NCBI GenBank assembly: GCA_026396195.1
Contig: JAPLXH010000002.1
Coordinates: 1 to 51,740 of the forward strand
Direction of reading: 5' to 3'
Length of the DNA stretch: 51,740 nt
Origin: Candidatus Nealsonbacteria bacterium
Lineage (GTDB): Bacteria; Patescibacteriota; Minisyncoccia; Minisyncoccales; JAGGXC01
Shown here: positions 8,528-46,599 of the stretch, piece after piece
Position numbering within the stretch: position 1 is the first letter of the stretch
Layout of the letters: every line of letters begins with the position of its first letter
Notes under the pieces: model-generated
The model's database searches: none
What the model was told of the DNA's origin: nothing
The model's input: the letters and a program-made list of their open reading frames with translations, nothing else
Position numbers and translations under genes: made by a program

Positions 8528-9250
8528 ATGCGAAAAAAGGAATTTTCAAAAAAACAAAAAACCGAAGAAATGGTTTCCATTATTGCTCATCAACTAAAAA
8601 GCCCGGTTGCGGCGATAAAAGGATATTTAGAGGCCTTGATTTCCGGAGATTGCGGCCAAATCAATAATTTTCAAAAAGAATATTTATCCGATGCTTTAGA
8701 GAACCTGATCAAAATGTCCGGATTTATTGATAATCTTTTGGATGTTTCCCGGATTGAAGAAGAGCATTTTGAAGTCAAACTGAAACCTACATCCCTGGAA
8801 AACGTAGCGGAAAAAGTTATTTCCGATTTGTCCGTTTGGACAGAAGCCAGCAACTGCAAAGTTCTTTTTGAAAAACCCGAGAGCTCTCTTCCTAAGGTTT
8901 TGACCGACCCTGATAAAATTGAAAAAGTTATCCAGAATTTAGTTACCAATGCCGTAAAATATAAAAAAATAGGTCCGGGCAATATTGAAATAAAAATAGA
9001 AAAAGAAGGCCAAAAAATTTTATTTTCCTGCAAAGATAATGGAATCGGAATCCCTCAAGAAGATTTAAAAAAAGTTTTTACTAAATTTTACCGCTCAAAA
9101 AAAGCCATGACGATTGATATTTTTGCTTCAGGAATAGGCCTTTATATAAATAAAGCCACAATTGAGCTTAGTGGCGGAAAAATTTGGTTTGTCAGAAACA
9201 AGAAGGGCGGTACGACCTTTTATTTCACTTTGCCTATTGTCAAAAATTAA
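8528..9250 (+). CDS. Soluble sensor histidine kinase
   Basis: 240 residues without membrane segments or a recognisable sensor domain. The H-box is IIAHQLKSPVAAIKGY with H21 as phosphorylation site. Next come the dimerisation helices, the N-box (VIQNLVTNAVKYK), G1 (DNGIGIP), F-box (FTKFYRSKKA) and G2 (ASGIGLYI). With so short an N-terminus it must sense through a partner or a cytosolic cue. No Shine-Dalgarno before ATG. The receiver protein starts 3 nt after the stop, and pilus genes follow, so it probably controls or is controlled with piliation. Confidence 0.92.
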   Translation: MRKKEFSKKQKTEEMVSIIAHQLKSPVAAIKGYLEALISGDCGQINNFQKEYLSDALENLIKMSGFIDNLLDVSRIEEEHFEVKLKPTSLENVAEKVISDLSVWTEASNCKVLFEKPESSLPKVLTDPDKIEKVIQNLVTNAVKYKKIGPGNIEIKIEKEGQKILFSCKDNGIGIPQEDLKKVFTKFYRSKKAMTIDIFASGIGLYINKATIELSGGKIWFVRNKKGGTTFYFTLPIVKN

Positions 9251-9253
9251 AAC

Positions 9254-9643
9254 ATGAGTGAAGAAAAACAAAAAATATTAATGATAGAAGAGGACCGTTT
9301 TTTAAGGAAGATTTATAAAAATAAATTATCAAAAGAAAACTTTGAATTCATTGAGGCTACCAACGGAGAGGAAGGCTTGAATAAAGTAATTTCTGAAAAT
9401 CCGGATGTCGTTTTGCTGGATTTGATTCTAACAAGAAAAAGCGGTTTTGATGTTTTGGTTGAAATGAAGAGAAACAGAAAAACCAAAAAAATTCCCGTTA
9501 TCATTCTTTCCAACCTTGGCCAGGAATCAGACATTCAGAGGGGTCTTTCTTTGGGAGCAAAAGAATATTTGGTTAAAACTGAAATTAGTCTTTCTGATGT
9601 GGTTAATAAAATAAAAGAATGGGCGGTTAAAATAAAAACATGA
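9254..9643 (+). CDS. Single-domain response regulator
   Basis: 129 residues, only a receiver domain. The acidic pocket is in MIEEDRFLR, the phospho-acceptor is D56 in VVLLDLIL, and the conserved Thr/Ser is replaced by S in IILSNLG. The conserved Lys is K108 in YLVKTE. There is no output domain, so it acts by protein contact, as CheY-like proteins do in pilus motility systems. Its TGA overlaps the pilB start (ATGA), which argues for translational coupling. Confidence 0.92.
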   Translation: MSEEKQKILMIEEDRFLRKIYKNKLSKENFEFIEATNGEEGLNKVISENPDVVLLDLILTRKSGFDVLVEMKRNRKTKKIPVIILSNLGQESDIQRGLSLGAKEYLVKTEISLSDVVNKIKEWAVKIKT

Positions 9644-11322
9644 TAATTACGGAAAATCTTTTAAAAAAAATTTTAGTTGATACTGAAATAATTTCTTTAA
9701 AAGATTTCAATTTAGCCATAGACCAAGCCTGCCAGAAATCAGAGCCTCTTGAGCAGATAATTATAGAAAAAGGATTTATTTCCGACGATGAATTAGGACA
9801 GCTTATTGCCGATGAAATCGGCTTTCCTGTTATTAATTTAAGAAAAATAAAGATAAACAAAGAAGTTTTAAGCATAGTTCCCGAGATAGTGGCAAAAAAA
9901 CAAGAAATAATTGTTTTTGAAAGGATAAAAGAAGGATTGAAGGTTGCAATGGCTAATCCCGAAAATTTGGAAATAAGAGAATTTATTGAAAGAAAAACAG
10001 GGGAAAAGGTTATCCCTTATTTTGCCACCAAAAACAGTATCAAAGATTCTTTTAAATTTTACAGGAAAGAAATCAAAGAAGAGTTTGAAGAAATTATCGG
10101 AAAAAATATAGAAGATTTAAAAAAAGTAAAAGACAAAGAAGAGCCTCTGCCGGCAATAAAAACAGTGGATTTGATTTTAAATTCGGGTTATGAAAATCGG
10201 GCTTCCGACATCCACATTGAGCCTTATGAAAATAAAATAATATTAAGATATCGAATTGACGGAGTTTTGCACGACGTTTTAACCCTGCCTAAAGAAGTTC
10301 AGGATTTTTTAGTTTCAAGAATTAAAATCATGGCTCGCTTGAGGACCGACGTTCATGATGCCGCCCAGGACGGGCATTTTTCCTTTCCAACCGCCAACGA
10401 AAAAGTTGATGTCCGGGTTTCAGTTGTTCCCATTGAAGAAGGAGAAAAAATAGTGATGAGAGTATTGGCGGAAAAATCAAAAAAATTCGACCTTAAAGAG
10501 CTGGGCTTTCTTCCTAAAGACCTGAATCTTATCAAGGAAAATTTAAAAAAGCCCTGGGGAATGATTATTTCTTCGGGTCCCACAGGTTGCGGAAAAACTA
10601 CGACGCTGTATGCATTGTTAAAAATTTTAAACACCCGCGATGTTAATATAATGACCATTGAAGACCCGATTGAGTATGACATCGAAGGGATTAATCAAAT
10701 TCAGGTTAATGCAAAAACCCATTTGACTTTTTCCAAAGGGTTAAGATCGATAATGAGACAGGACCCCAATATCATAATGGTCGGGGAAATAAGAGATTCC
10801 GAAACCGCTAAACTCGCGGTAAGCGCCGCCATGACCGGCCACTTGGTTCTTTCAACTTTCCATGCCATTGACGCTTCAACGGTTTTAACCAGGCTTACTG
10901 ACATAGGAATTGAACCCTATATCATATCTTCCACAGTCAACATTATTATTGCCCAAAGATTAGTCCGGAAAATTTGCCCTAAATGCATTGAAAGCTATGA
11001 AATTTCATCTCAGAAATTAGAAGTTCTTCTGTCCAAAGATTTAATTTCTAAGTTGCCAAAAACTAAAAAAGGAAACATCTGTCTTTTTAAAGGAAAAGGA
11101 TGTCCGGTTTGTCAGAAAACCGGATATTTGGGAAGAGTGGGTATTTTTGAAATTTTGGAAATGAACGACCCTATTAAAAAATTGGTAATGGAAAAAGCCA
11201 ATGCTTCTCAAATTAGAAATGAGGCCTTAAAGTCGGGGATGACTCCGATGATTGACGACGGTCTGTTGAAGGCGGAAAACGGCTTAACGACCCTCGAAGA
11301 AATTTTAAAAGCAGTAAAATAA
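9640..11322 (+). CDS. pilB: Type IV pilus assembly ATPase PilB
   Basis: Hexameric ATPase that powers pilus polymerisation; 560 residues. The N-terminal MshEN/GSPII_E_N region runs to about residue 150. The ATPase has Walker A GPTGCGKT (313-320), an Asp box (TIEDPIEYD), Walker B IIMVGEIRD (from 378) and a His box (STFHAIDAS). The four-cysteine zinc site is C446-x2-C449 and C488-x2-C491. Ends in the usual TTLEEILKAV. Overlaps the receiver gene by 4 nt; pilC follows after 4 nt. Confidence 0.97.
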   Translation: MIITENLLKKILVDTEIISLKDFNLAIDQACQKSEPLEQIIIEKGFISDDELGQLIADEIGFPVINLRKIKINKEVLSIVPEIVAKKQEIIVFERIKEGLKVAMANPENLEIREFIERKTGEKVIPYFATKNSIKDSFKFYRKEIKEEFEEIIGKNIEDLKKVKDKEEPLPAIKTVDLILNSGYENRASDIHIEPYENKIILRYRIDGVLHDVLTLPKEVQDFLVSRIKIMARLRTDVHDAAQDGHFSFPTANEKVDVRVSVVPIEEGEKIVMRVLAEKSKKFDLKELGFLPKDLNLIKENLKKPWGMIISSGPTGCGKTTTLYALLKILNTRDVNIMTIEDPIEYDIEGINQIQVNAKTHLTFSKGLRSIMRQDPNIIMVGEIRDSETAKLAVSAAMTGHLVLSTFHAIDASTVLTRLTDIGIEPYIISSTVNIIIAQRLVRKICPKCIESYEISSQKLEVLLSKDLISKLPKTKKGNICLFKGKGCPVCQKTGYLGRVGIFEILEMNDPIKKLVMEKANASQIRNEALKSGMTPMIDDGLLKAENGLTTLEEILKAVK

Positions 11323-11326
11323 ACCT

Positions 11327-12370
11327 ATGTTTAATTTTCAAAAAGAAAAAATGTTATTTGCCGAGCATCTTTCTTTGTTAATCAAGGGCGGAACAACCCT
11401 TAACGAGGCATTGGACATTTTGAAAGAAGAATCAAAATCAAGAACCTTTAAAAAAGCCCTGGACAGTGTTTCCAAAAGAATTTTAGAAGGAGAAAGCCTG
11501 AATAAAAGCTTGGCAAGATATCCTAAAATTTTTAATAAATTTTTTCAAAACGTGGTAAAAGTAGGGGAGGAAAGCGGAACTCTTGAGGAAAATTTAAAAT
11601 ATTTGAGCCTTTGCCTTAAAAACCAATACTCCTTAAAACAAAAATTATTGGGCGCCTTGATGTATCCCATTATTGTTATTGCCTTAGCTTTAGTTATTGT
11701 TTCAGGAACCATGATTTTTATTTTGCCAAAATTATTTACCACACTAAATGTTATTGAAGCTCAACTGCCTTTATCTACCAAAATTTTATTTGGAATCAGT
11801 GTTTTTATACAAAAATACTGGATTTTTTTAATAGTAATTTTTATTTTTTTAATTTTAATTTATAAAATTTTTAATTATATAAAAATTACCAGGTTTTATT
11901 TTCATAAAATTATTTTTTTTATGCCTTTTTTCGGAACTACCAATAAAAATAGCAATTTGGCTGAATTTTCCCGGGTTTTTTTCACTCTTCTGAAAAGCGG
12001 AGTGCCGATTCTGGAAGCTTTTGATATTTGCAATGAAACGGTAACCAGTGATGTTTATAAAAAATATTTGAAATTAGTAAAAGCTCGCGTTGAAAAGGGA
12101 CAAAAGCTCAGCAAATCTTTTAAGGCGTTTCCTAAGATTTTTCCTTCAATTTTTTCCCAGATGATTTTGGTCGGTGAAAAGTCAGGAACCCTGGAAGAAA
12201 GCATGTCTTATTTGGCTGAGTTTTACGAACAGGAAGCCGACTCGGCTCTTAAAAACTTTTCTGCAATAATAGAACCTATTCTGTTAATTTTAGTCGGATT
12301 TTTTGTTGCTTTCATTGCTCTATCCATAATTACTCCAATTTATCAGATTACCAGTAATCTGTCTCAATAA
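11327..12370 (+). CDS. pilC: Type IV pilus inner-membrane platform protein PilC
   Basis: 347 residues with the two-fold repeated T2SF domain. The first half has FAEHLSLLIKGGTTLNEALDIL and VGEESGTLEENL; the second has FSRVFFTLLKSGVPILEAF and VGEKSGTLEESMSYL. Hydrophobic segments are near residues 110-135, 160-185 and 320-342. It transmits PilB strokes to pilin subunits. About 50 residues shorter than the typical 400 because the N-terminal cytoplasmic extension is short. Confidence 0.95.
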   Translation: MFNFQKEKMLFAEHLSLLIKGGTTLNEALDILKEESKSRTFKKALDSVSKRILEGESLNKSLARYPKIFNKFFQNVVKVGEESGTLEENLKYLSLCLKNQYSLKQKLLGALMYPIIVIALALVIVSGTMIFILPKLFTTLNVIEAQLPLSTKILFGISVFIQKYWIFLIVIFIFLILIYKIFNYIKITRFYFHKIIFFMPFFGTTNKNSNLAEFSRVFFTLLKSGVPILEAFDICNETVTSDVYKKYLKLVKARVEKGQKLSKSFKAFPKIFPSIFSQMILVGEKSGTLEESMSYLAEFYEQEADSALKNFSAIIEPILLILVGFFVAFIALSIITPIYQITSNLSQ

Positions 12371-12380
12371 TTTATAATCT

Positions 12381-13340
12381 ATGACCGTAAAGAAATCTCA
12401 GAAAGCTTTTACTTTGATTGAGATTTTGCTTGTGATTGGAATATTTTCAATCTTGGCGATTCTTACTTTGCCTTTATCTTTGGATTTTTATAAAAAATAC
12501 CAGCTTGATATTTATACTCAGGAAATCGTTCAGGCCCTAAGAAGAGCTCAATTAAAGTCAATGTCAGTTGAGCAAGATTCAAGATTCGGAATTTATTTAG
12601 CCGAAGGAAACTATGTTTTATTCAGGGGCAATTCTTATGCGGTCCGGGAATTGCAATATGATGAAATTTTTGACATTCCTTATAATATTTCTTTAAGCGG
12701 GTTGTCGGAAATAGTTTTTTCTAAACTATCTGGCCTGCCATCGGTTAGTGGCGATATTATTTTAACCAATGGCAACGAAGAAAGAATTATAAATATTAAT
12801 AGCATAGGAAGAATAAGTTATAAAATAAAATTAGTATCACCACCTCCTCCGCCACCGCTCAATTGTTGGGGAACCGGAGGTTCTTGCGATTCTCTTTGTC
12901 AATATTTAAACTATGGAACTTTAACGAGTTATTATGTAAACCCAGGTTGTGCCACTTCTTGTCTTGCTACCGGTTCAATTTATGTAGGCCCAAGTGGTTT
13001 TTGTAGCACAGACGGTACGGGTAATTGTTATAAAATGGAAAGTCCTGCTGTTCAATACACTTCCTCTTCTCAGGGAACAAGTTGCAGAGGCGCTTGTTCG
13101 GGAGTATGCAGGCCTTGTACTCTTCTCCGCACCCAATCAACATGTATTAACCAACGTGGTTGTAGTTGGGTTTCAGGAAGATGTCTAGGAACATGTTTGT
13201 CGTGTTCTGATTCTTATTTTAATAATAGGGTCTTATGCGAGAATCAAAGAATTTGTTCTTGGGCAGATACAAGTTGGTATTGGAATTTAAGTAATTCTCA
13301 AAATGGATACAATTCTTATGTTACATGTCAATGGTATTGA
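12381..13340 (+). CDS. Minor pilin (GspH/FimT-like) with cysteine-rich C-terminal module
   Basis: 319 residues. The class III signal is KKSQKA then FTLIEILLVIGIF, with Glu at +5 and Ala rather than Gly at -1. The pilin domain (residues about 10-150) includes QALRRAQLKSMSVEQDSRF, as in GspH/FimT. A proline hinge (PPPPPP) leads to a module of about 155 residues with 19 cysteines, starting NCWGTGGSCDSLCQ and ending CQWY. The module includes two copies of a C-x-NQ-x2-C-S-W unit. The next two pilins carry the same module. The module is probably disulfide-rich and surface-exposed at the pilus tip (inference). Overlaps the next gene. Confidence 0.88.
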   Translation: MTVKKSQKAFTLIEILLVIGIFSILAILTLPLSLDFYKKYQLDIYTQEIVQALRRAQLKSMSVEQDSRFGIYLAEGNYVLFRGNSYAVRELQYDEIFDIPYNISLSGLSEIVFSKLSGLPSVSGDIILTNGNEERIININSIGRISYKIKLVSPPPPPPLNCWGTGGSCDSLCQYLNYGTLTSYYVNPGCATSCLATGSIYVGPSGFCSTDGTGNCYKMESPAVQYTSSSQGTSCRGACSGVCRPCTLLRTQSTCINQRGCSWVSGRCLGTCLSCSDSYFNNRVLCENQRICSWADTSWYWNLSNSQNGYNSYVTCQWY

Positions 13341-14634
13341 TAAAAACAAGGGTCAATCTCTTATGGAGTTATTAATTGCCATAGGAGTTTTTATTATATT
13401 ATTTAGCGGTATAGTTTTTTTAATATTAAACGATTATACTTCAAGCCTTTTAACTCAGGAAATGAACACAGCGAATTTTTTAGCCGGAGAAGGGATCGAG
13501 GTTACAAAATCTATTCGGGATAATTCTTGGGATGACTTAATAATCGGGGAACACGGTTTGGCAATTTCCGAGAACAAATGGATTTTTCAAGGCATAGAAG
13601 AAAATATAAGCAGCCAGCTTAGAGACGGGAAAAGAAAGATAATCGTAAATACCATAAATTCAGACAAAAAAGAAATAATTTCTAAGGTAACCTGGAAATT
13701 AAATGAAGCTCGTTCTCAAGAAGTTATTCTAGTTACTTATCTTACTAACTGGCAAAAGATTTTATCTTTTTTACCTGATGTTTTTTTTGATTCGGACAAA
13801 TACTCAGTTTCAGAAGACGGAGGAAGCGTTATTATTCCAGTTGAACTTTCTGCCTCGAGCAGTAATGAAATTTCAGTAGATTATATAACAAGCGATGACA
13901 CGGCAATGGGTTGTTCTGTGTGTAATGCTGATTGTGACTATATTACCGCTTCAGGAACCTTAAACTGGGTTCAAGGCGATAATTCTCCAAAGACCTTTGT
14001 TATTACTATTTGCAATGATTCTATTAAAGAAACAGAAAATGAAACGCTTAATCTTTTTTTGATTAATCCGGTTAATGTTAATTTGGGTAATCCCAGTATG
14101 GCTGTCCTGACAATAAAGGATGATGATAAACCACATCAAAACTGTTGGGGAACAGGAGGTTCTTGTGATTCTCTTTGTCAGTATGCCAATTATGGCTCTC
14201 TAAATAGTTATTATACTAATTTTGGCTGTACTTCTACCTGTCCTGTTGCCGGTTCTTTCTATATTAATTTTAGTGGAGCTTGCAGTAATAATGGAACAGG
14301 TTTTTGTTATAAGATGGAAAATTTTTTAACTCGATTTACTTCTTGTTCTCAGGGAGCAAGTTGCGGAGTAGCTAATTGTTCGGGAGCATGCACGCCTTGT
14401 AATAATTTTTACACTGAACTAGCTTGCCTTAATCAACTTGGTTGTCGTTGGCTTATAAGCCCTGAAGAAGGAGAGGGAACCTGTGCAGGAACATGTCGGT
14501 CGTGTTCTAATTTTAACAATAGAGCTTTATGCGAAAATCAAAGAGGTTGTATTTGGACAGACGCAAGGTGGAATTGGACCTTAAGTAATTCTCGAACAGG
14601 TTATTCTTCCTATGCTAGCTGTACTTGGTACTAG
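13318..14634 (+). CDS. Minor pilin (PilV/GspI-like) with Calx-beta domain and cysteine-rich module
   Basis: Starts possible at 13303 and 13318. Either overlaps the previous gene; 13318 leaves a shorter leader (MLHVNGIDKNKG) before the cleavage point G/QSLMELLIAIGVF, with Glu at +5. About 438 residues. After the pilin part, residues about 155-275 form a Calx-beta-like domain (DKYSVSEDGGSVIIPVEL, then DSIKETENETLNLFL and LTIKDDD). The cysteine-rich module follows, starting QNCWGTGGSCDSLCQ and ending CTWY. Calx-beta domains often bind Ca2+ in adhesins. A G at -1 suggests normal prepilin peptidase processing. Candidate pilus-tip adhesin. Confidence 0.88.
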   Translation: MLHVNGIDKNKGQSLMELLIAIGVFIILFSGIVFLILNDYTSSLLTQEMNTANFLAGEGIEVTKSIRDNSWDDLIIGEHGLAISENKWIFQGIEENISSQLRDGKRKIIVNTINSDKKEIISKVTWKLNEARSQEVILVTYLTNWQKILSFLPDVFFDSDKYSVSEDGGSVIIPVELSASSSNEISVDYITSDDTAMGCSVCNADCDYITASGTLNWVQGDNSPKTFVITICNDSIKETENETLNLFLINPVNVNLGNPSMAVLTIKDDDKPHQNCWGTGGSCDSLCQYANYGSLNSYYTNFGCTSTCPVAGSFYINFSGACSNNGTGFCYKMENFLTRFTSCSQGASCGVANCSGACTPCNNFYTELACLNQLGCRWLISPEEGEGTCAGTCRSCSNFNNRALCENQRGCIWTDARWNWTLSNSRTGYSSYASCTWY

Positions 14635-14640
14635 TAATAA

Positions 14641-15552
14641 ATGATTAAAAACATGAAAGGATTTACTTTTATTGAATTAATAATTTACATAGCCATTCTT
14701 TCTGTTATTTTAGTTTTAGTTGGCAATCTTACTTGGAATATTATTCAAGGCAATACCAAGAATGCTTCTTATAGAGAAGTTCAGCAAAATATCAGTTTTG
14801 CTATGGAAAAAATTACTAAAGACCTTAGGCTAGGCTCCAACCCCAATATTTTTTCTGTTTTAGATGGAGTTCTTTACCAGAACAATATTCCTCTTACTAC
14901 CGCTCAAGTTAAGGTAATAAATTTCCAAATTACTCCCATTGCTAATACTTATAAAATTGGCTTAAGTATTGAATACAATAATCCTAGCAACAGAAATGAA
15001 TATAAAGCAGCGATAGTTTTAAACTCAACGGTAACTTTAACGGCAATAGGCAGCGTGCCTTCTCAGGGCTGTTGGGGAATCGGAGGCTCTTGCGACCCTA
15101 TTTGTCAACATAATAGTTACGGTTCTTTAATCAGTTACTATGCTAATCCTGGTTGTACTTCTACCTGTCCTGTTGCCGGTTCTTTCTATATTAATTCCGG
15201 TGGCGCTTGCAGTAATGATGGAACAGGTTCTTGCCACAAGATGGGAAATTCTTTAACTGCATCTACTTCTTGTTCGCAGGGAGCAAGTTGTGGAGGCACT
15301 TGCTTGGGGATATGTACTCCCTGTTCAGGTTTAAATCAGGCCCAGTGTTCTCAACAACAGCGTTGCCGGTGGTTTTCTTTTTCTGGAGGGCGGTGTTTTG
15401 GTCGGTGCACTATCTGTAGTAATTTTTCCGACCAAACTTTTTGTCAAAATCAATTAGGATGTTCATGGCAGAGCACAGGATGGAATTGGACCCTAAGTAA
15501 TTCTCAAGGAGGTTATTCTTCCTACGCTAATTGTGAATGGTATGTCCAATAA
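14641..15552 (+). CDS. Minor pilin (PilW/GspJ-like) with cysteine-rich module
   Basis: 303 residues. Signal MIKNMKG then FTFIELIIYIAILSVIL, cut after Gly with Glu at +5. Pilin part to about residue 137 (ISFAMEKITKDLRLGSNP resembles PilW/GspJ). The third cysteine-rich module then starts QGCWGIGGSCDPICQ and ends CEWYVQ. A 43-nt segment (15154-15196) is identical to one in the preceding gene (14227-14269), so the modules were duplicated or converted recently. The stop lies inside the start region of the next gene. Confidence 0.88.
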   Translation: MIKNMKGFTFIELIIYIAILSVILVLVGNLTWNIIQGNTKNASYREVQQNISFAMEKITKDLRLGSNPNIFSVLDGVLYQNNIPLTTAQVKVINFQITPIANTYKIGLSIEYNNPSNRNEYKAAIVLNSTVTLTAIGSVPSQGCWGIGGSCDPICQHNSYGSLISYYANPGCTSTCPVAGSFYINSGGACSNDGTGSCHKMGNSLTASTSCSQGASCGGTCLGICTPCSGLNQAQCSQQQRCRWFSFSGGRCFGRCTICSNFSDQTFCQNQLGCSWQSTGWNWTLSNSQGGYSSYANCEWYVQ

Positions 15553-15940
15553 TAATCAAAAAAATCAAGAGGGATATATTGCTTTAATTTCAGTAATTAC
15601 GGCTTCGGCAATAGCTTTAATGATAGTGATTAGCGCCGGCTTATTAGGCATTTCTGATTTAAAGATGGAGTTGCAAAAAATCCAGTCTTTGCAATCTTAT
15701 TATCTGGCCAATCTCTGTGCTGAACATTCTTTAATGCGACTAAAAGAAAATATGAGTTATAATGGAGACGAGACAATAAATTTGGCGGAGGGCACCTGCC
15801 GGATTTTACCGATTGAAGGAAACTGGACCGTAAAAGTTTTTGCCAGTTCTTCCGGGCAGGTCAGAAAGATGAAAATAATAATTAGCCAAATTAATCCCAA
15901 AATGTCTATTTATTCTTGGGAAGAAGTAGCTGAATTTTAA
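15542..15940 (+). CDS. PilX/GspK-like pilin-associated protein
   Basis: About 132 residues from ATG 15542. A GTG at 15533 in the same frame is less likely. The N-terminal segment MSNNNQKNQEG then YIALISVITASAIALMIVI resembles PilX-type proteins, but the +5 residue is Ile rather than Glu. The missing Glu is also typical of tip-initiating GspK/PilX members. Two cysteines are present (NLCAEHS and GTCRIL), and the cysteine-rich module is absent. It overlaps the previous gene by 11 nt and precedes pilM by 4 nt. With the three minor pilins it likely forms the tip complex. Confidence 0.75.
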   Translation: MSNNNQKNQEGYIALISVITASAIALMIVISAGLLGISDLKMELQKIQSLQSYYLANLCAEHSLMRLKENMSYNGDETINLAEGTCRILPIEGNWTVKVFASSSGQVRKMKIIISQINPKMSIYSWEEVAEF

Positions 15941-15944
15941 TTCC

Positions 15945-17555
15945 ATGGTTAATTTTTATAAAAAACAATTTTTGAGTTTTAATATATCTGATTATTCAGT
16001 AGAGCTGATTTCGCTGAAGGGCTTTTTGGAATCTCCTGAAATTAGAGTTTTTGGCAGAACGGTGCTTGAAAAGGGAACGGTTGAAAACGGTAAAATTTTA
16101 AACAAAGAAAAGTTAAAAGATTCTATTCAAAAATTAATTAAAAATCCCGATTTTGGAAAACCAAAAACAAAAAAAATAATTTTTTCAATACCCGAGTCAA
16201 AAACCCTTTTTTGCACCTTTGAGCTTCCAAAAGACCTGGAAGGAGACGAAGAAGAAGAGCTTAATTTCATAAAGAGAGAGGCGGAACAAACTTTTCCTTA
16301 TTCGCTGGAAGACCTTTATTTGGATTTTAAAATCAACAATAAAGAAGTTTTTTTGTTTGCCGTTCCCAGGGAAACAACGGACGAGTTTTTAGAAATTTTT
16401 AAAGATTGCAAGTTAGAACCTGTAATTTTTGAGCCGGAATCGGAAAGTCTTTTTCGTTCTTTAATCAAAGGAAAAAAAGACCCCATTCTAATTGTTGATA
16501 TTGGCGAGAAAACCACCGATTTTAGCGTTTTCAACAAAGGTTTTTTAAAAACAAGCATTTCAATTGAAACCGCGGGAAACAAATTTACGCAATCTATTTC
16601 AGAAGGCCTGAAAGTTTCTTTTAAAGAAGCTCAGAAGCTGAAAGAAAAATTTGGATTAAGTCCGGAAAAGAAACAAGGAAAAATATTTTTAATTCTTCAA
16701 AAAGAAGTCAGAGAAATTATTGATGAAATAAAAAAAATTGAAGATTATTTTAAGAACAAAGAAAGCAAAGGCCTTGAAAAAATAATTCTGACCGGAGGTT
16801 CGGCACTCTTGCCTTGTTTTTCAGAATATCTGGCTGAAAATTTGCAAAAATCTGTAATTATCGGCAGCCCTTTGGAAAATATTAATATAGACGATTTACC
16901 AAACAGAAAAACTTTTAAAATGAAGTCTGTTATTTATTCAGCGGCAATCGGCTCCGCTTTGAGGGGATTGGACAAAGATCCGGAAAATTCAGGAATTAAT
17001 TTGATAAAGGAAATAAAAAACAAAACTCCTAAAAAAAGACAAACGTCCGAAACTGATTTACCATCTCCTAAAAAATCATCTGCCCGGAAATTGCCGCGGA
17101 AAAAAATTTTAATTTGGATTGCGGTTGCAAGCGCAATTGGAATTTCAGCAATCCTTGCGATTAAGTTTGTGCCGGGATTATTTAATTCGCAAGAAAAAAA
17201 ATTTGAAAACAAAGAAGTGCCGGCAGTTTCTCCGGTCCTTCCGGAGGAAGAATTAATCAACCCTAATCCTATTCCGGAGCCTCAAGGGGGATTAGAAGTA
17301 GTTTCCAGCAGCAGTGAAGAAAAAAAAGAAGAAGAAAAGGGTTTAGAAATAACTAATCCTAAATTAAAGATTACAGATACGCCGACCGGATGGCTCAATG
17401 TCCGCGATGAAGCTTCCTTTGACGGAAAAGCGATTACAAAAGTTTACCCTGACGAGGAATACGAATATACCGACGAAAAAGACGGTTGGTACAGGATTAT
17501 TTTGCAAGATAAAACAGAGGGATGGGTTTTTGGGGGTTATATTATAAAGATTTAA
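15945..17555 (+). CDS. pilM: PilM-like actin-fold protein fused to a membrane segment and SH3b domain
   Basis: 536 residues. Residues 1-345 are PilM-like, with nucleotide-pocket motifs DPILIVDIGEKTTDFSVF and IILTGGSALLPCF. A Lys/Arg-rich linker leads to one membrane span at about 388-410 (IWIAVASAIGISAILAIKF). A Pro/Glu-rich linker follows, then a bacterial SH3 domain at about 475-536 (GWLNVRDEASFDGKAI, DGWYRIIL, EGWVFGGYI). Normal PilM is cytoplasmic and ends after the actin fold. The added span and SH3b would place a wall-binding domain outside the membrane, perhaps replacing PilN/PilO/PilP, none of which is seen here (inference). Confidence 0.85.
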   Translation: MVNFYKKQFLSFNISDYSVELISLKGFLESPEIRVFGRTVLEKGTVENGKILNKEKLKDSIQKLIKNPDFGKPKTKKIIFSIPESKTLFCTFELPKDLEGDEEEELNFIKREAEQTFPYSLEDLYLDFKINNKEVFLFAVPRETTDEFLEIFKDCKLEPVIFEPESESLFRSLIKGKKDPILIVDIGEKTTDFSVFNKGFLKTSISIETAGNKFTQSISEGLKVSFKEAQKLKEKFGLSPEKKQGKIFLILQKEVREIIDEIKKIEDYFKNKESKGLEKIILTGGSALLPCFSEYLAENLQKSVIIGSPLENINIDDLPNRKTFKMKSVIYSAAIGSALRGLDKDPENSGINLIKEIKNKTPKKRQTSETDLPSPKKSSARKLPRKKILIWIAVASAIGISAILAIKFVPGLFNSQEKKFENKEVPAVSPVLPEEELINPNPIPEPQGGLEVVSSSSEEKKEEEKGLEITNPKLKITDTPTGWLNVRDEASFDGKAITKVYPDEEYEYTDEKDGWYRIILQDKTEGWVFGGYIIKI

Positions 17556-17679: not shown

Positions 17680-18159
17680 ATGAAAAACAAGGGTTTTACT
17701 TTAATCGAATTATTGATAGTAGTTGGAATTTTAGCTGTTTTAATAGGCGCAATAGCTGCTGCAGTTAACCCGCCGAAACAATTTGCCAAAGCCAATAATT
17801 CTCGACGCTGGGCGGATATTATGAATATTATGAATGCGGTTTCCCAAAATATAATTGAAGGAAAAGGAGTGTTTACCACATCTTCATCGTGCACACAGCT
17901 TATTCCTACGACAACCGCCACTAACATACAAAAGACAGGAGGTTATGACCTTTGTGCTTGCATAGTTCCCAACTTCATAGGAAGTTTGGCAGTGGATCCG
18001 TTGCAAGGCTCTCCGGCCAATGGAGTAACAGATTGCGCCGCAGCTTATAGCACATATTACCAGATTCAACGAAACGAAATTACCGGCCGAATAACAATTA
18101 CTGCTCCTCTTGCCCAATCAGAAGGCGGAACAACACCTGTAATTTCTCTTACCCGTTAA
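17680..18159 (+). CDS. Type IV major pilin
   Basis: 159 residues. Signal MKNKG then FTLIELLIVVGILAVLIGAI, with Gly at -1, Phe at +1 and Glu at +5: a textbook class III prepilin. The globular part has QFAKANNSRRWADIMNIMNAV, as in PilA/PilE-like pilins, and four cysteines, but not the cysteine-rich module of the minor pilins. It stands 124 nt after pilM, with a small GACC-AAAAA-GGTC hairpin (17634-17646) and TATTATAT-like sequence between, and has its own terminator. Separate, stronger expression is plausible for the main subunit. Confidence 0.93.
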   Translation: MKNKGFTLIELLIVVGILAVLIGAIAAAVNPPKQFAKANNSRRWADIMNIMNAVSQNIIEGKGVFTTSSSCTQLIPTTTATNIQKTGGYDLCACIVPNFIGSLAVDPLQGSPANGVTDCAAAYSTYYQIQRNEITGRITITAPLAQSEGGTTPVISLTR

Positions 18160-18189
18160 TTTATTAAAATTTTAAAGACACCAGAAATT

Positions 18190-18216
18190 AACCCTGACTT
18201 TTTGTTAGGGTTTTTT
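18190..18216 (+). terminator. Terminator of the major pilin gene
   Basis: AACCCTGAC (18190-18198), loop TTTTT, GTTAGGGTT (18204-18212) and a T run to 18216. Confidence 0.85.
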
Positions 18217-18238
18217 CGTTGATAAAATTATTGAGGGG

Positions 18239-18267
18239 TTGACAAGGGTTAATTAATTTTCTAATAT
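18239..18267 (+). promoter_or_regulatory. rRNA promoter
   Basis: TTGACA (18239-18244), a 17-nt spacer and TAATAT (18262-18267), the best promoter match in the window. Start near 18274, about 185 nt before mature 23S. Confidence 0.8.
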
Positions 18268-18314
18268 TAAAGCGCATGATAAATACCGTTATTAATTTGA
18301 AGAAACAAAAACAA

Positions 18315-18382
18315 AGAAGCGGTTAAAATATTCTGGGAATTTTAGTTCTCAGAACAATCGCTTCTAAAAGAAGCGGTTTTTT
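18315..18382 (+). promoter_or_regulatory. Attenuator-like leader upstream of 23S rRNA
   Basis: CGCTTCT (18359-18365), loop AAA and AGAAGCG (18369-18375) then G and six T form a complete intrinsic terminator. The same CGCTTCT can instead pair with an identical AGAAGCG at 18315-18321, enclosing a 9-bp hairpin (18331-18339 with 18346-18354). This is a terminator/antiterminator arrangement. Alternatively, 18274-18382 could be a free small RNA of about 108 nt. Confidence 0.6.
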
Positions 18383-18410
18383 ATTGAAGGACTATTGATA
18401 GAGCGCGAAA

Positions 18411-18422
18411 GAACTTTGAAAA
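18411..18422 (+). promoter_or_regulatory. boxA-like antitermination element
   Basis: GAACTTTGAAAA just before the 23S processing stem resembles the boxA (TTCTTTGAAAAC-type) of many rRNA leaders, bound by NusB-NusE. nusB lies at 6649. The match is short, so this is moderate evidence. Confidence 0.4.
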
Positions 18423-18424
18423 TT

Positions 18425-18450
18425 AATGATTATTAATTACTAGCCAAGAG
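18425..18450 (+). repeat. 23S processing stem, 5' arm (3' arm 21421-21446)
   Basis: The 26-nt arm is complementary to 21421-21446 with only a few mismatches. Both contain TAGCCAAGAG or its complement at the base nearest 23S. The pair brings the two ends of the precursor together as an RNase III substrate. Confidence 0.85.
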
Positions 18451-18457
18451 ATGCACT

Positions 18458-21418
18458 TACATAATATATATTAAAGGCAGATGGTGGATGCCCTGGGAGA
18501 CTGCGGCGAAGAAGGACGTGGCGTAGCTGCGATAAGCTTCGGGGAGGTGCTTAGCAACCTATGATCCGGAGATTTCCGAATGGGGAAACCTATTCTGATG
18601 ATGAATCAGAATGTCTCAATTTAAAATTGAGAAGCAAACCCGCTGAAGTGAAACATCCTAGTAAGCGGAGGAAAATAAAAAAAGTTCCGACTTGTCGGAA
18701 TCATTTCCTTAGTAGCGGCGAGCGAAAAGGAAGGAGCTCAAACCTTTTTTGATGCAAATCGAGAGAGGGGTAGTAAGAAGATAACGTTGGGGGCATTTCT
18801 GGTGCACAGAAATGCTTTCTAAGGAGAACATTTAGGCAAAGTTTGATTAGTCGAAATACCCTGGAAAGGGATACCATAGAGGGTAAAAGTCCCTTAGGCG
18901 AAAATCACTTTGTGCTCCTTGTTATTTATCTTGAGTACTTCGGGAAAAGACAAACCTGAAGGAAGCAGGCTGAACTATCAGCCAAAGCTAAATACGTCAG
19001 TCTCACCAATAGTGAACCAGTACCGTGAGGGAAAGGTGAAAAGTAGGGGGGTGACCCCGGTGAAATAGAACCTGAAACCATTTTGCCTACAAAGAGTCGA
19101 AGCCCCGGTCGCAAGATCGTGGGTAACGGCGTGCCTATTGAAGAATGAGCCAACGAGTTTGGGCGTTTTCTTAGTCTAAGTCCCTATGGGACAGAGGCGT
19201 AGCGAAAGCAAGCGTCAAAAGCGCGTTAAGAAAGTGTCCAAGACCCGAAGCCAGTGCGAGCTTGCCATGACCAGGATGAACCCCGACGAAAGTTGGGGGG
19301 AGGTCCGAACCCGTGAGTCGTTCAACTCTCTGGGATGAGTTGTGGTAAGAAGTGAAAAGCTAAACGAGCCTGGTAATAGCTGGTTCTTCCCGAGATAACT
19401 TTCCGGTTAGCGTCGAGCTTATGCAATTGGAGGTAGAGCACTGGATGGAATACCGTGGTGTTTCGCCAGGTTTTCCAACCAAACTCCGAATGCCATTTGC
19501 AACTACTCGGCAGTTAGACTCCGGGCGCTAAGGTTCGGGGTCGAGAGGAAAAGAGTCCAGACCTTCATCTAAGGTCCCAAAATTTGAGCTAAGTGTACTT
19601 AAGGAGGTGGAGCCTCTGTGATAGTTAGAAGGTTAGCTTAGAAGCAGCTATCCTTTAAAAAGTGCGTAATAGCTTACTAACTAAGAGACTCTGCACCGAA
19701 GATTTCCGGGACTAAAGCTCAGTACCGAAGATAAGGCTTCATATGGTATTTATACAATGTGAGGGGTAGGGAAGCGTTCTCTTCTGCGATGAAGCTTCGA
19801 CGTGAGTCGGGGTGGAGCGGAGAGAAGTGAAAATGTTGGCATGAGTAACCACAATCCTGATGAAAACTCAGGACACTGATATCCTTAGGTTTCCTTGGCA
19901 ATGAAAATCAGCCAAGGGTTAGGCGGGCCTTAGGGGATGCCGAAAGGCGTACCTGATGGACAGCCGGTTAATATTCCAGCCCGTCCGTTAATTAACCTCA
20001 AAATGACGAAGAGTTGTATTCTGGGCGTATTATTGGATTTACGTTTGTCCTATGAGGATTTTTCCAAGTAGGCCAGAAATTTTTTTCCTCGGAAAGGAAA
20101 ATTCAGACGAGCACTCTTCCGAGAAAAGTTTTGAGTATTATTAACGGGCACCGTACCGTAAACCGACACAGGTGGGATGGTGTAAGTGTACCAAGGTGAA
20201 CGAGTGAAAGCTCCTAAAGGAACTCGGCAAACAAGCAGGCGTAACTTAGGAATAAGCCTTGCCCTCGCTTGACGAGGGCCGCAGCAAAAGTATCTCTGAC
20301 GACTGTTTACCAAAAACACAGGTTCCTGCTAACTCGCAAGAGGATGTATAGGAACTGAGGCCTGACCAGTGCTGGAACGTTAACAGCGGCGGTCTTTTCA
20401 ACGCAAGTTGGAAAGGCTAACTGCTCGAAGCGCCAGTAAACGTCCGCGGTAACTATAACCGTGTTAAAGTAGCGTAACCCCTTGCCAGGTAAGTTCTGGC
20501 CCGCATGAAAGGCTTAACGATTGGAGAACTGTCTCTAGGAGCTGCTCGGTGAAAATGCAAAACCTGTAAAGATGCAGGTTACTTGCGGCTAGACGGAAAG
20601 ACCCCGGGAGCTTTACTGTATCCAGATATTGAATTTTGATTTTTGATGCGTAGCGTAGGTGGGAGACTTTGAAACCTCGATTTTGGTCGGGGTGGAGTCG
20701 CCAATGAAACACCACTCTTTAAAAATCTTTCTTCTAATCTCTGACAAAATCAGAGAGACAGTGTCTGGTGGGCAGTTTAAGTGGGGCACTTGCCTCCTAA
20801 AAGGTAATGGAGGCGTTTAAAGGTCGGCTAGCTCCGGATGGAAATCGGAGTTGTCGGGTAAAGCCATAAGCCGGCTTTACTGCAAGGCGTATATGCCACG
20901 CAGTTGCGAAAGCAGAACTTAGTGAACCGACCCTGGTTTATAGAATCGGGGGAGATCATCAGACAAAAGTTACCCCGGGGAAAACAGGCTGGTAGGGCCC
21001 GCGAGTCCGTATCTACGGCCCTGTTCGGCACCTCGATGTCGGCTCAACGCATCCTGGGACTGGAGTAGGCCCCAAGGGTTTGGCTGTTCGCCAATTAAAG
21101 CGTTACGTGAGCTGGGTTCAAACCGTCGCGAGACAGGTTGGTCCCTATCTACCGCAAGCGTTAGAATTTTGAGGGAGGTTGATCCTAGTACGAGAGGACC
21201 GGATTGAACTAACCTCTGGTGTACCAGTTGTCACGCCCGTGGCATCGCTGGGTAGCTAAGTTAGGTCGGGATAAGAGCTGAAAGCATCTAAGCTCGAAGC
21301 CCATCCCAAGATTAGAATTCATTTTAAGGCCGGTCAGAGACTATGACCTTGATAGGGCACAGGTGTAAGCTCAGCAATGAGTTAAGCCGAGTGCTACTAA
21401 TGGCCAAATATAAAATGC
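18458..21418 (+). rRNA. rrl: 23S ribosomal RNA
   Basis: About 2.96 kb, near normal length, so no large intron. Recognisable landmarks are GGTGGATGCCCTGG at the 5' end, CTAGACGGAAAGACCCCG (about 20590), the peptidyl-transferase loop CCCCGGGGAAAACAGGCT (20973-20990), GATGTCGGCTC (about 21035) and the sarcin-ricin loop AGTACGAGAGGACC (21187-21200). Ends are estimated to within about 10 nt from the terminal helix. One base in the peptidyl-transferase loop is unusual (see findings). No 16S or tRNA lies beside it; 5S follows. Confidence 0.96.
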
Positions 21419-21466
21419 TTCTCTTGGCTAATAAGTGATAATCATTAAAAATCAAATAAAAAAAAG

Positions 21467-21592
21467 AGGCAGTCACGGGGACTATACTAGAAGTGTTCCA
21501 CCTGTTTCCATTCCGAACACAGAAGTGAAATCTTCTAAGGCCCATGATAGTATCCATTAGGATGCGAAAGTAGGTAGTTCCCTTGATTGCCT
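21467..21592 (+). rRNA. rrf: 5S ribosomal RNA
   Basis: About 120 nt with terminal helix I formed by GAGGCAGTCACGGG and CCCTTGATTGCCTC. The core CCATTCCGAACACAGAAGTGAA is shortened here to its landmark TTCCGAACACAGAAG. GATGCGAAAGTAGG marks the loop E/helix IV side. The stable terminal helix followed by a T run (21592 on) probably also ends transcription. Lies about 50 nt after 23S. Confidence 0.93.
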
Positions 21593-21607
21593 CTTTTTAT
21601 TTGTTTG

Positions 21608-21636
21608 TTGACTTTTATTTTTTTTGCAATTATTCT
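21608..21636 (+). promoter_or_regulatory. Promoter of the small membrane protein at 21678
   Basis: TTGACT (21608-21613), 17 nt, TATTCT (21631-21636); leader of about 35 nt with a strong SD. Confidence 0.55.
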
Positions 21637-21677
21637 GATTTAATTAGCACCTGAAAAATTAAGGAGGATCGAGAGAA

Positions 21678-21902
21678 ATGGTAAGAGGAACGCTAAAAAT
21701 GAATTGGAGATATTTGGGATTGGGGTTTTTGTTGTCCGGAGCAGCAATTTTTATAGGTTTCTTTTTTCAAATCGAGAACGACGATTTTCCGGAAAAGCTT
21801 TTGATAGGCATTGCATTGATAGTGGCTTTCATATTGATTGTTGCCGGTTGTAATAACTGCAAGTTTCTTTCAAAGAAAAAAAATAAAACTAAAGAGGTCT
21901 AA
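21678..21902 (+). CDS. Small two-span membrane protein
   Basis: 74 residues. Spans are predicted at about 9-29 (WRYLGLGFLLSGAAIFIGFF) and 40-60 (LLIGIALIVAFILIVAG), with a basic tail (KKKNKTKEV). Strong SD AAGGAGGA 12 nt before ATG, with its own promoter and terminator. No family recognised. Lies alone between the rRNA genes and mreC. Confidence 0.75.
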   Translation: MVRGTLKMNWRYLGLGFLLSGAAIFIGFFFQIENDDFPEKLLIGIALIVAFILIVAGCNNCKFLSKKKNKTKEV

Positions 21903-21917
21903 CTCCCTCTTTTTATT
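21891..21917 (+). terminator. Terminator of the 21678 gene
   Basis: AAAGAGG (21891-21897) pairs with CCTCTTT (21906-21912), followed by a T-rich run. The stop codon lies in the loop. Confidence 0.7.
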
Positions 21918-21953
21918 TTTTTGGATTTGTTATATATAATAAGAGAAAATAAC

Positions 21954-22760
21954 ATGGAAAAAGAAAATATAAAGAAAATAGCCTTAATCCTCATTTTTTT
22001 GTTTTTAATTGTTTTAGCTCTGAATTTTTTAAATAAAAAATCTGATTTTTTGAATAATTTTAAAGGTTTTTTTTATTCAATTTCCCAATCAATTCAAAAG
22101 CCTCTTTGGCAGGCCGGAGACGGCTTTTCCGATTTTTTTGAAGGAATTTCTCAGGGCAAAAAGATAAAACAAGAAAACGAAAAATTAAAAACTGATTATG
22201 AGAATCTTTTATTCCAAAACATTGCTGTTGATGAATTAAAAAAAGAAAATGATTATTTAAGAAAAGCCTTGGAATTGGGGTTAAATGAAGAATTTAAACT
22301 GGTTTTAGCTCAAGTTATTTCCAAAGACATTTCTCAGGACTCAATTTTAATAAACAAAGGCCTAAAAGACGGCTTGTCCCAGGGCATGACCGTGATCACC
22401 GAGCAGAAAGTGCTTTTGGGTAAGGTAGCTGAAGTTTCCGATAAATTTTCCCGGGTAATCTTGATTTCCAACTCCGAAAGCTTTTTTCCCGTGACAATTC
22501 AGGCCGCCCAGGCCACCGGCATTATTAGGGGCAGGGGAAATGGCCAGCTTTCCTTGGAAGAAATACCTCGGGATAAAGAAATAAAAGAAGATGATATTGT
22601 GCTCACCACGTCTTTGGGCGGAAACTTTCCCAGAGGTCTTTTAGTCGGGAAAATTAAAAATATCAAAAAAAGCGACACCGAACCTTTCCAAAAAGCGGAA
22701 GTTTATTCTTTCCTGAAGATTGATGATATAAGAACGGTTTTTGCCGTAACCAGTTTTTAA
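21954..22760 (+). CDS. mreC: Rod-shape protein MreC
   Basis: 268 residues from ATG 21954. A TTG at 21921 extends the frame but sits on the preceding terminator and a TATAAT box (21935-21940), so it is rejected as start. One N-terminal membrane span (ALILIFLFLIVLALNFL), a coiled coil (about 65-105, KKIKQENEKLKTDYENL), then the two beta-barrels of MreC (SILINKGLKDGLSQGMTVIT, TTSLGGNFPRGLLVGKI). It scaffolds the elongasome outside the membrane. First gene of mreC-mreD-mrdA-ABC. Confidence 0.94.
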   Translation: MEKENIKKIALILIFLFLIVLALNFLNKKSDFLNNFKGFFYSISQSIQKPLWQAGDGFSDFFEGISQGKKIKQENEKLKTDYENLLFQNIAVDELKKENDYLRKALELGLNEEFKLVLAQVISKDISQDSILINKGLKDGLSQGMTVITEQKVLLGKVAEVSDKFSRVILISNSESFFPVTIQAAQATGIIRGRGNGQLSLEEIPRDKEIKEDDIVLTTSLGGNFPRGLLVGKIKNIKKSDTEPFQKAEVYSFLKIDDIRTVFAVTSF

Positions 22761-45627: not shown

Positions 45628-46599
45628 ATGTTAAAAAACCTCAAAAACTTCAAAAATTTAGCAGTGCTATCTATTATCATTGCCGCAGTTATAATTAGCG
45701 GAACCTTACTTTACACTAATCATAAAAAATGCGATGCCAACAAGAGTTCAGCCGATGTTCTTTCTTCCCAAACCGTAGCCGAAAAAGCCTTGGCTTTTAT
45801 CAATAAAAATATGCTGCAGGAAGGATTAAGCGCTTCTTTGGTCAGCATAATAAAAGAAAACGAGCTTTATAAATTAAAAATTAAAGTTAACGAAGAAGAA
45901 TTCGAGCCTTATGTCAGCCTTGACGGAAATATGTTGTTTGTCCAGGGTTTTAACATGGAAGAAAAAAAGCAGGAGGTTGGAGCTAAAAGAGATAAACCGG
46001 ACGTTAAATTATTTGTAATGTCTTATTGTCCTTTCGGATTGCAAACCCAAAAAGCTCTTTTACCGGTTCTTAGTTTGTTAAAAGATAAAGCGGACATGGG
46101 AGTATATTTTGTTAACTATATAATGCACGGCAAAAACGAAATTGATGAAAACTTAAGGCAATATTGCATTCAAGCAGAGCAAGGAGATAAATACAGCGCC
46201 TACTTGAGCTGTTTTGTTCAAGAAGGAAACTTTGATAAGTGCCTTTCCGACACAGGAATAGACAAAGTAAAAATGAATTCTTGTATTTCTGCGACAGACC
46301 ATCAATTTAAGATTACCGAGCAATACAACGACAAATCAACCTGGCTTAACGGCCAGTATCCGAAATTTGACGTTCAGGGAGAGCTTAACCAGCAATATCA
46401 GGTTGGAGGTTCCCCGACAGTCGTGATTAACGATAAAGTCGTTAATATCAGCGACAGGTCGCCCGAAGGATTCAAAAAAGCGATTTGCGATGCTTTCACT
46501 ACTGCTCCTGCAGAATGTAACCAAACGCTTTCAACGTCTTCCGCTTCTTCCGGTTTTGGCGTAACAACGGGCGGGACTAGCGGCGGCAGCTGTCAATAA
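45628..46599 (+). CDS. Secreted or membrane-anchored thioredoxin-fold protein
   Basis: 323 residues. An N-terminal hydrophobic anchor (LAVLSIIIAAVIISGTLLY) precedes a linker and a small domain (80-130). A thioredoxin-like domain follows. The active site reads S-Y-C-P-F-G, so the second cysteine of CxxC is missing. The cis-Pro loop is GGSPTVVIN. A cysteine-rich insert (QYCIQAEQG, LSCFVQ, KCLSD, NSCI) recalls GILT-like thiol reductases. Probably acts outside the membrane on disulfides, perhaps of the cysteine-rich pilins (inference). Gly/Ser tail ends GGSCQ. Own terminator. Confidence 0.85.
   Translation: MLKNLKNFKNLAVLSIIIAAVIISGTLLYTNHKKCDANKSSADVLSSQTVAEKALAFINKNMLQEGLSASLVSIIKENELYKLKIKVNEEEFEPYVSLDGNMLFVQGFNMEEKKQEVGAKRDKPDVKLFVMSYCPFGLQTQKALLPVLSLLKDKADMGVYFVNYIMHGKNEIDENLRQYCIQAEQGDKYSAYLSCFVQEGNFDKCLSDTGIDKVKMNSCISATDHQFKITEQYNDKSTWLNGQYPKFDVQGELNQQYQVGGSPTVVINDKVVNISDRSPEGFKKAICDAFTTAPAECNQTLSTSSASSGFGVTTGGTSGGSCQ

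What the first reader, a model, noticed from the sequence alone, without database searches (positions are those of the whole stretch)
12835..15552. Three different minor pilins end in the same cysteine-rich module
The GspH-, PilV- and PilW-like pilins each end in about 155 residues with roughly 19 cysteines, starting CWGxGGSCD and ending CxWY, and containing C-x-NQ-x2-C-x-W units. The pilin halves belong to separate families, so the module was added or exchanged as a block. It is an attractive candidate for a disulfide-locked tip structure used in attachment to a host cell. Nothing in the sequence proves this.
Basis: partly seen in the sequence, partly recalled or inferred. Interest (0 to 1): 0.82.

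Follow-up and report, generated by a model that had tools for sequence, protein, structure and literature searches.

The report
Shared cysteine-rich head on minor pilins
Three of the four proteins that should sit at the tip of a bacterial hair (type IV pilus) in an ultrasmall bacterium end in the same undescribed cysteine-rich block, and smaller versions of that block are grafted at other positions onto the matching tip proteins of distant relatives, so it is probably a tough, exchangeable tip head for gripping something, perhaps a host cell.

Summary
Genes 12381-13340, 13303-14634 and 14641-15552 (H/GspH-FimT, I/PilV and J/PilW type minor pilins) each end in a 159-164-residue block, CWGxGGSCD...CxWY, with 19, 20 and 20 cysteines. 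The blocks are 52-61% identical while the pilin halves are barely alike. They match no Pfam, NCBIfam or PHROGs family. PilV also carries a Calx-beta domain. The block is composite: a cap, two copies of a 25-residue unit (C-x-G-x4-C-x2-[FY]-x5-C-x2-Q-x-G-C-x-W), and a C-terminal tail. The unit occurs elsewhere. It is rare (about 1-3% of related genomes), sits mostly on orthologous minor pilins of the same operon, but at different positions (a loop inside H in four genomes, the end of PilV in two, a long PilV extension in three), and in a few genomes it lies on large non-pilin surface proteins. This makes them modular pilins, with one new module repeated on three subunits of an HIJK tip set. The best reading is a disulfide-hardened tip head for contact or adhesion. 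Tip placement rests on gene order and on the K-type partner lacking Glu5. Disulfides and host attachment are inferred. A resemblance to protist surface-coat cysteine domains is a lead only.

The parts
8528..9643 (+). Histidine kinase (8528-9250) and response regulator (9254-9643) at the head of the pil gene run; the same pair precedes pilB in relatives G019, G026, G050 and G089
   Evidence: Pfam HisKA/HATPase_c/Response_reg; synteny
9640..11322 (+). PilB-type extension ATPase
   Evidence: Pfam T2SSE 1.7e-123, MshEN
11327..12370 (+). PilC/GspF-type platform protein
   Evidence: Pfam T2SSF 1.1e-59
12381..13340 (+). H-type (GspH/FimT/ComGD-like) minor pilin with C-terminal cysteine block
   Evidence: N_methyl 2.5e-6; ComGD 1.7e-11, below its cut-off; mature end FTLIE, Glu5 present
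12835..12860 (+). Proline-rich linker (PPPPPPLN) between pilin half and block
   Evidence: translation; a similar PPPPPPP linker in G001
12864..13337 (+). Cysteine block of H (19 Cys): cap CWG...; units at 13095-13169 and 13182-13262; tail ...CQWY
13303..14634 (+). I-type (PilV-like) minor pilin: pilin half, Calx-beta domain, cysteine block; reading frame overlaps the end of H
   Evidence: prepilin motif G|QSLME by sequence; N_methyl only 0.0034, under its cut-off; position in operon
13780..14127 (+). Calx-beta domain inside PilV
   Evidence: PF03160 E = 1.5e-13, residues 160-275
14143..14631 (+). Cysteine block of PilV (20 Cys); units at 14377-14451 and 14482-14556; tail ...CTWY
14641..15552 (+). 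J-type (PilW-like) minor pilin with C-terminal cysteine block
   Evidence: N_methyl 5.7e-6; operon position
15070..15543 (+). Cysteine block of PilW (20 Cys); units at about 15301-15372 and 15394-15468; tail ...CEWY(VQ)
15533..15940 (+). K-type (PilX/GspK-like) fourth minor pilin, no cysteine block, no Glu at +5 (G|YIALI); overlaps the end of PilW
   Evidence: translation; conserved in the same place in relatives
15945..17555 (+). PilM-like protein with a C-terminal bacterial SH3 domain
   Evidence: PilM_2 3.6e-35 and SH3_3 2.1e-11; TIGR01175 1.4e-33, below its cut-off
17680..18159 (+). Probable major pilin (PilA-like)
   Evidence: N_methyl 3.6e-8; terminator-like hairpin at 18190-18212 (count no higher than in shuffles)

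Best explanation
The three genes encode modular minor pilins. The pilin halves assemble through their N-terminal helices into the H-I-J-K set that starts a type IV pilus and stays at its tip. The grafted cysteine blocks project as a three-part, disulfide-hardened cap that makes the first contact with a surface, most likely another cell, while the pilus is extended and pulled. Each block is a cap domain, two tandem copies of a 25-residue mini-domain and a tail that closes it. In the lineage's history the mini-domain has been moved between tip subunits and other surface proteins, and the three copies here descend from block duplication within this family, with later sequence exchange between the PilV and PilW copies. 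Shown here: the block, its copies, its unit, its rarity, its preference for this operon, its different grafting positions, and the operon order. Inferred: tip location, disulfides, contact or adhesion, and the identity of the partner.
For: Operon HK-RR-PilB-PilC-H-I-J-K-PilM-PilA, with K lacking Glu5. The literature places HIJK at the tip, capped by a subunit lacking Glu5 (PMC10191384), and describes modular pilins with grafted adhesive modules (PMC8179133, PMC9934059). H pilin alignment: two-unit graft between the '..LP' and 'G.I.L' strands in G019, G026, G050 and G089, full block at the C-terminus in the window, G001 and G002. PilV ends in two units in G026 and G089; PilV extensions with separated units in G465, G532 and G861. 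In G092 a six-unit 842-residue protein is encoded beside a prepilin-peptidase and pilin cluster. Outside the own genome only 3 of about 380 sampled phylum genomes match at E <= 1e-3. Purifying selection: dN 0.28-0.37 against dS 0.78-2.1. In G019 the whole block CWG...CSWY reads as an insert in a surface protein, so its ends are probably close together. AlphaFold gives pLDDT about 70-83 for the unit pair. The genome has a CPHC thioredoxin domain fused to a DsbD/CcdA-like membrane part. Patescibacterial precedent: deletion of TM7x PilX2, a minor pilin with an added C-terminal domain, lowers host binding (PMC12206443).
Against: No binding function is detectable: no family match for the block, and no fold match with E <= 0.001. 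VKOR and Thioredoxin_4 families were not found in the genome, so a full disulfide-forming pathway is unproven. Cap and tail are predicted with low confidence (pLDDT < 50). The block also occurs on a non-pilin protein. PilW in relatives G019, G050 and G089 and H in G465 and G532 lack it, so the tip does not need it. No host is known.
Confidence: 0.58

Rival explanations
1. The blocks are inert disulfide-rich spacers or armour that raise and protect the tip (as suggested for the cysteine domains of some surface coats), and ligand binding lies elsewhere, for example in the Calx-beta domain of PilV.
For: The unit pair resembles, by sequence (E = 0.076) and weakly by fold (prob 0.15, TM 0.52 on the target), the C-terminal domain of a trypanosome VSG. 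In that domain one or two structured regions with four cysteines each, and a conserved aromatic residue, form a conserved fold whose cysteines the authors suggest are dispensable (PMC12226131). In G465, G482 and G861 single units flank a beta-sandwich-like stretch rather than stand alone.
Against: The same block on three subunits, and grafting into a loop of the H head, are more than a stalk needs; the proline-rich linker already serves as spacer in H.
Confidence: 0.2
2. The pilus is a DNA-uptake (Com-like) pilus and the blocks contact DNA at the tip.
For: The H pilin's best curated hit is ComGD (1.7e-11, below cut-off). Patescibacteria are thought to take up DNA (general knowledge).
Against: The blocks carry few charges: Lys+Arg 5-8 and Asp+Glu 4-8 per block. 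ComGD similarity lies in the shared pilin half, not in the block.
Confidence: 0.1
3. The cysteines bind metal (zinc, iron or copper) for structure, uptake or electron transfer.
For: Many CxxC and CxGxC pairs; a weak zn-ribbon_14 hit in one relative (E = 0.02); VKOR not found.
Against: The 4-cysteine unit has even spacing and a conserved Gly, Gln and Trp, and no conserved His or Asp ligands. Extracellular cysteine-rich repeats are usually disulfide-bonded (general knowledge). H can lose one cysteine.
Confidence: 0.06
4. A selfish or neutral in-frame coding repeat spread through surface genes, with no function at the pilus.
For: Patchy distribution (7 of 247 order genomes); several unrelated carriers; a 43-nt identical tract between PilV and PilW copies (permutation p = 0.0003).
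Against: dN well below dS. Only pilin copies in the own genome. H-type and W-type blocks stay recognisable between genera of the family: H caps are closest to H, and the G001/G002 C-terminal pieces, both ending in CEWYVQ or CEWYVR, are closest to W.
Confidence: 0.06

Closest known systems
Modular type IV pilins (Streptococcus sanguinis PilB with vWA, PilC with lectin; PMC8179133, PMC9934059)
   Same: A pilin half with an extra module grafted on for display at the pilus tip; several tip subunits in one complex can be modular
   Different: There the modules differ and belong to known adhesive folds; here one undescribed cysteine module sits on three subunits, and its parts also occur in a loop inside the H head
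Saccharibacteria TM7x PilX2/PilX1 (PMC12206443)
   Same: Minor pilins of host-dependent Patescibacteria with added C-terminal domains; PilX2 is needed for normal host binding
   Different: Beta-propeller and jelly-roll domains on X-type pilins; the search of that paper found no mention of cysteine or disulfide. Here the module is on H, V and W, and the X/K pilin has none
HIJK tip complex with PilC/PilY1 (T4aP; PMC10191384)
   Same: Four minor pilin genes in H-I-J-K order, K without Glu5
   Different: No PilY1 match in this genome, though the control was silent, so absence is not shown; the added blocks might replace such an effector
VSG C-terminal domain (PF10659, PDB 2jwg) and Paramecium surface antigen repeat (PF01508)
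   Same: C-x8-C-x5-C-x-W spacing, small tandem cysteine mini-domains on surface proteins; 2jwg appears in both the sequence and the fold search; one relative's protein (G216) passes the Paramecium_SA cut-off (6e-5)
   Different: The window block passes no cut-off; the scores are not significant on their own, and homology across kingdoms is not claimed

Membership tests
Modular type IV pilin | Prepilin N-terminus (class III signal, hydrophobic helix) | tested here: met
   N_methyl 2.5e-6 (H) and 5.7e-6 (W), both over the cut-off; V 0.0034, under it, but with motif G|QSLME (sequence)
Modular type IV pilin | Extra domain not specific to pilus biology | tested here: met
   Block also on non-pilin proteins of relatives; Calx-beta in PilV
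Modular type IV pilin | Displayed by the filament, functional in adhesion | not testable with these tools
   needs bench work
HIJK tip complex | Four adjacent minor pilins, K without Glu5 | tested here: met
   Gene order and translations; K begins G|YIALI
HIJK tip complex | Physical complex at the tip | not testable with these tools
PilC/PilY1 tip adhesin | PilY1 beta-propeller domain PF05567 in the genome | tested here: inconclusive
   no match, but no control genome rang either
VSG C-terminal domain PF10659 | Match over the family cut-off | tested here: not met
   no match for the window proteins
Paramecium surface antigen PF01508 | Match over the family cut-off | tested here: not met
   window proteins no match; one unit pair from the alignment 0.2; only relative G216's protein passes
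PSI/plexin repeat | Pfam match | tested here: not met
   no PSI hit up to E = 1 for the full proteins or up to 10 for unit pairs

The most novel reading that the evidence does not exclude
A previously undescribed 25-residue disulfide mini-domain family serves as a standard, exchangeable tip part of Patescibacteria pili. In this lineage it has been built up into a large block and placed on H, I and J at once, giving a three-part cysteine cap of about 480 residues and 59 cysteines that replaces a PilY1-type tip adhesin for gripping a host cell.
Probability: 0.35. Interest if true: 0.72.

Novelty: new variant of a known kind. Interest (0 to 1): 0.56.

Why it matters
How Patescibacteria recognise and hold their host cells is largely unknown, and their minor pilins are leading candidates. 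A rare, family-defining module that recurs at three positions on the same tip set, and in other forms on orthologous tip pilins of distant relatives, gives a concrete target: 160-residue soluble domains that can be expressed, folded and tested for binding. It also gives a sequence signature (the 25-residue unit) to follow tip remodelling across the group, and suggests that one tip complex can carry the same module on several subunits.

Tried and rejected
Pfam, NCBIfam and PHROGs scans of the block: nothing. PDB sequence search with the block: only chance-level hits. Fold search of the whole block model: no E <= 0.001, poor model. Phage, plasmid and viral-contig searches: no relatives, so a phage or plasmid origin is not supported. 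The wider genome-contig scan gave one locus, a contig of the same length as G002's, ending inside the block. Weak order- and class-level hits in G005, G916, G661, G714 and G601 were read and dismissed as out-of-frame or low-complexity. A zinc-ribbon reading and a PSI-domain reading were considered and not supported. PilY1 search: uninformative because the control was silent.

Full report
OBSERVATION. The window is one complete contig (51,740 bases) of a 792-kb, 98.7%-complete genome. Three consecutive genes at 12381-13340, 13303-14634 and 14641-15552 encode pilin-like proteins that end in blocks of 159, 164 and 159 residues (to the final WY) with 19, 20 and 20 cysteines. Cysteine is 12% of the block against 1.1% in 39 other ORFs of the window; the H and W pilin halves have none, and the longer V half, which includes the Calx-beta domain, has four. 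Blocks match each other at 52-61% identity with E near 1e-54 to 1e-62, while the halves before them are barely alike. A DNA pattern search and a protein search find exactly three copies in the genome, all here.

ANATOMY. The block has three parts. The first is a cap of about 75 residues (CWGxGGSCDxxCQ...GTGxCxKM...SQGxSC). The second is two tandem copies of a unit. The third is a tail (WxWxLSNS...YxSYxxCxWY). Of 29 unit copies collected from nine genomes, 24 are exactly 25 residues from the first Cys to the Trp, with C1, G3, C8, C17, C23 and W25 invariant and Q20 and G22 nearly so. A 4-cysteine form occurs in G465, G532, G482, G092 and G861. A 5-cysteine form, with an extra Cys at position 5, occurs in the window genome, G019, G026, G050 and G089. 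Two tandem 5-cysteine units have an even total, so the extra cysteines may bridge the units (inference). PilV carries a Calx-beta domain between its pilin half and its block. H has a proline-rich linker.

OPERON. The order is histidine kinase, response regulator, PilB, PilC, H, I(PilV), J(PilW), K(PilX-like), PilM, PilA-like. Frames overlap at H/V and at W/K. K's mature N-terminus lacks Glu at position 5 (sequence), which is how the subunit capping the HIJK tip complex is described (PMC10191384). Relatives G019, G050 and G089 have the same run. G026 has it as far as its contig goes, and G465 and G532 have the PilB to PilA part, G532 with one further pilin gene between H and V.

WHERE ELSE. Full or partial blocks occur in both same-family genomes, at the C-terminus of the H pilin, with the contigs ending inside the block. 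The whole block, longer and with 34 cysteines, reads as an insert in a 1701-residue non-pilin surface protein of G019. Two-unit grafts sit inside a loop of the H pilin head in G019, G026, G050 and G089 and at the end of PilV in G026 and G089. Single 4-cysteine units flank a beta-sandwich-like stretch in the PilV of G465 and G861 and in a 1238-residue protein of G482; G532's PilV has two separated units. A six-unit protein of G092 is encoded beside a prepilin-peptidase and pilin cluster. G216 has a 1388-residue cysteine-rich protein that matches Paramecium_SA. The unit is rare: 7 of 247 order genomes at E <= 1e-3, 4 of 380 phylum genomes including the own genome, 6 of 380 with the single-unit profile at E <= 0.01, of which two weak hits (G601, G248) were not counted. 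Counting the own genome, ten genomes carry it on minor pilins. Three carry it only on other proteins, one of these beside pilin genes. One (G019) has both. So it is neither pilin-only nor common on other proteins.

EVOLUTION. H caps of the sister genus are closest to the window's H cap, and the sister C-terminal pieces, both ending in CEWYVQ or CEWYVR, are closest to W (margins are small). This suggests that the copies were already separate before the genera split. dN is 0.28-0.37 against dS 0.78-2.1, so the blocks are kept by selection. PilV and PilW share a 43-base identical tract (codon-permutation p = 0.0003), which points to sequence exchange between copies. The loop graft in H and the C-terminal graft in H are two different solutions on orthologous pilins, which is direct evidence of repeated grafting.

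STRUCTURE. AlphaFold with only four related rows gives pLDDT 70-83 for the unit pair and below 50 for cap and tail; the unit pair alone reaches 74.8. No PDB fold match has E <= 0.001. One 46-residue chain, 2jwg (C-terminal domain of a trypanosome VSG), is the top sequence hit of the unit-pair profile (E = 0.076) and has the highest match probability in the fold search (0.15, TM 0.52 on the target). That domain is described as one or two structured regions with four cysteines each and a conserved aromatic residue (PMC12226131). Neither score is significant alone; I treat it as a lead to a similar small fold, not as homology.

MECHANISM. The pilin halves should enter the filament through their helices, and HIJK should start and cap it; this is established for other type IV filaments (PMC10191384, PMC9934059) and inferred here from gene order. 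The blocks would then form a bulky tip cap. Cysteine richness, Trp/Gly/Gln conservation, extracellular location and the presence of a CPHC thioredoxin domain fused to a DsbD/CcdA-like membrane part (C6; the DsbD/CcdA reading is mine from the sequence) make disulfides likely. The absence of VKOR and Thioredoxin_4 families leaves the oxidant unknown. Contact or adhesion is a common role proposed for grafted pilin modules and has a precedent in Patescibacteria: PilX2 deletion lowered host binding in TM7x (PMC12206443). A spacer or armour role is the strongest rival.

NOVELTY. Modular pilins are a known kind, and Patescibacteria are already among the listed examples (PMC8179133). New here are the module itself, its unit, its use on three tip subunits at once, and its several grafting positions. 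I rate it a new variant of a known kind.

Noticed in passing
   Followed up: partly
window 15945-17555: PilM-like protein extended by a membrane-spanning stretch and a bacterial SH3 domain (SH3_3, E = 2.1e-11), unusual for a cytoplasmic PilM.
   Followed up: no
window 8528-9643: A histidine kinase without an obvious sensor domain and a response regulator directly precede pilB, also in four relatives; possibly pilus regulators.
   Followed up: partly
L009, L012, L017, L018 (G001, G002): In both sister-genus genomes, contigs end inside the cysteine block; near-identical copies or population variation may have broken the assemblies. A PilV start joined to a PilW-like end at the edge of G002 contig C3 may be a misassembly.
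   Followed up: partly
window 45628-46599: Predicted exported protein with a weak match to BdbD (E = 0.013) but a CPFG in place of a CxxC active site.
   Followed up: partly
L075 (G000 contig C6 near 44500): CPHC thioredoxin domain fused to a DsbD/CcdA-like membrane protein, 384-residue frame; possible extracytoplasmic thiol-disulfide system.
   Followed up: partly
window 18461-21586: 23S and 5S rRNA genes follow the pil operon; no 16S gene was found in the searched stretch 18100-22000.
   Followed up: no
L074 (G216 C87): 1388-residue protein with 82 cysteines that passes the Paramecium surface antigen cut-off in a bacterial genome.
   Followed up: partly
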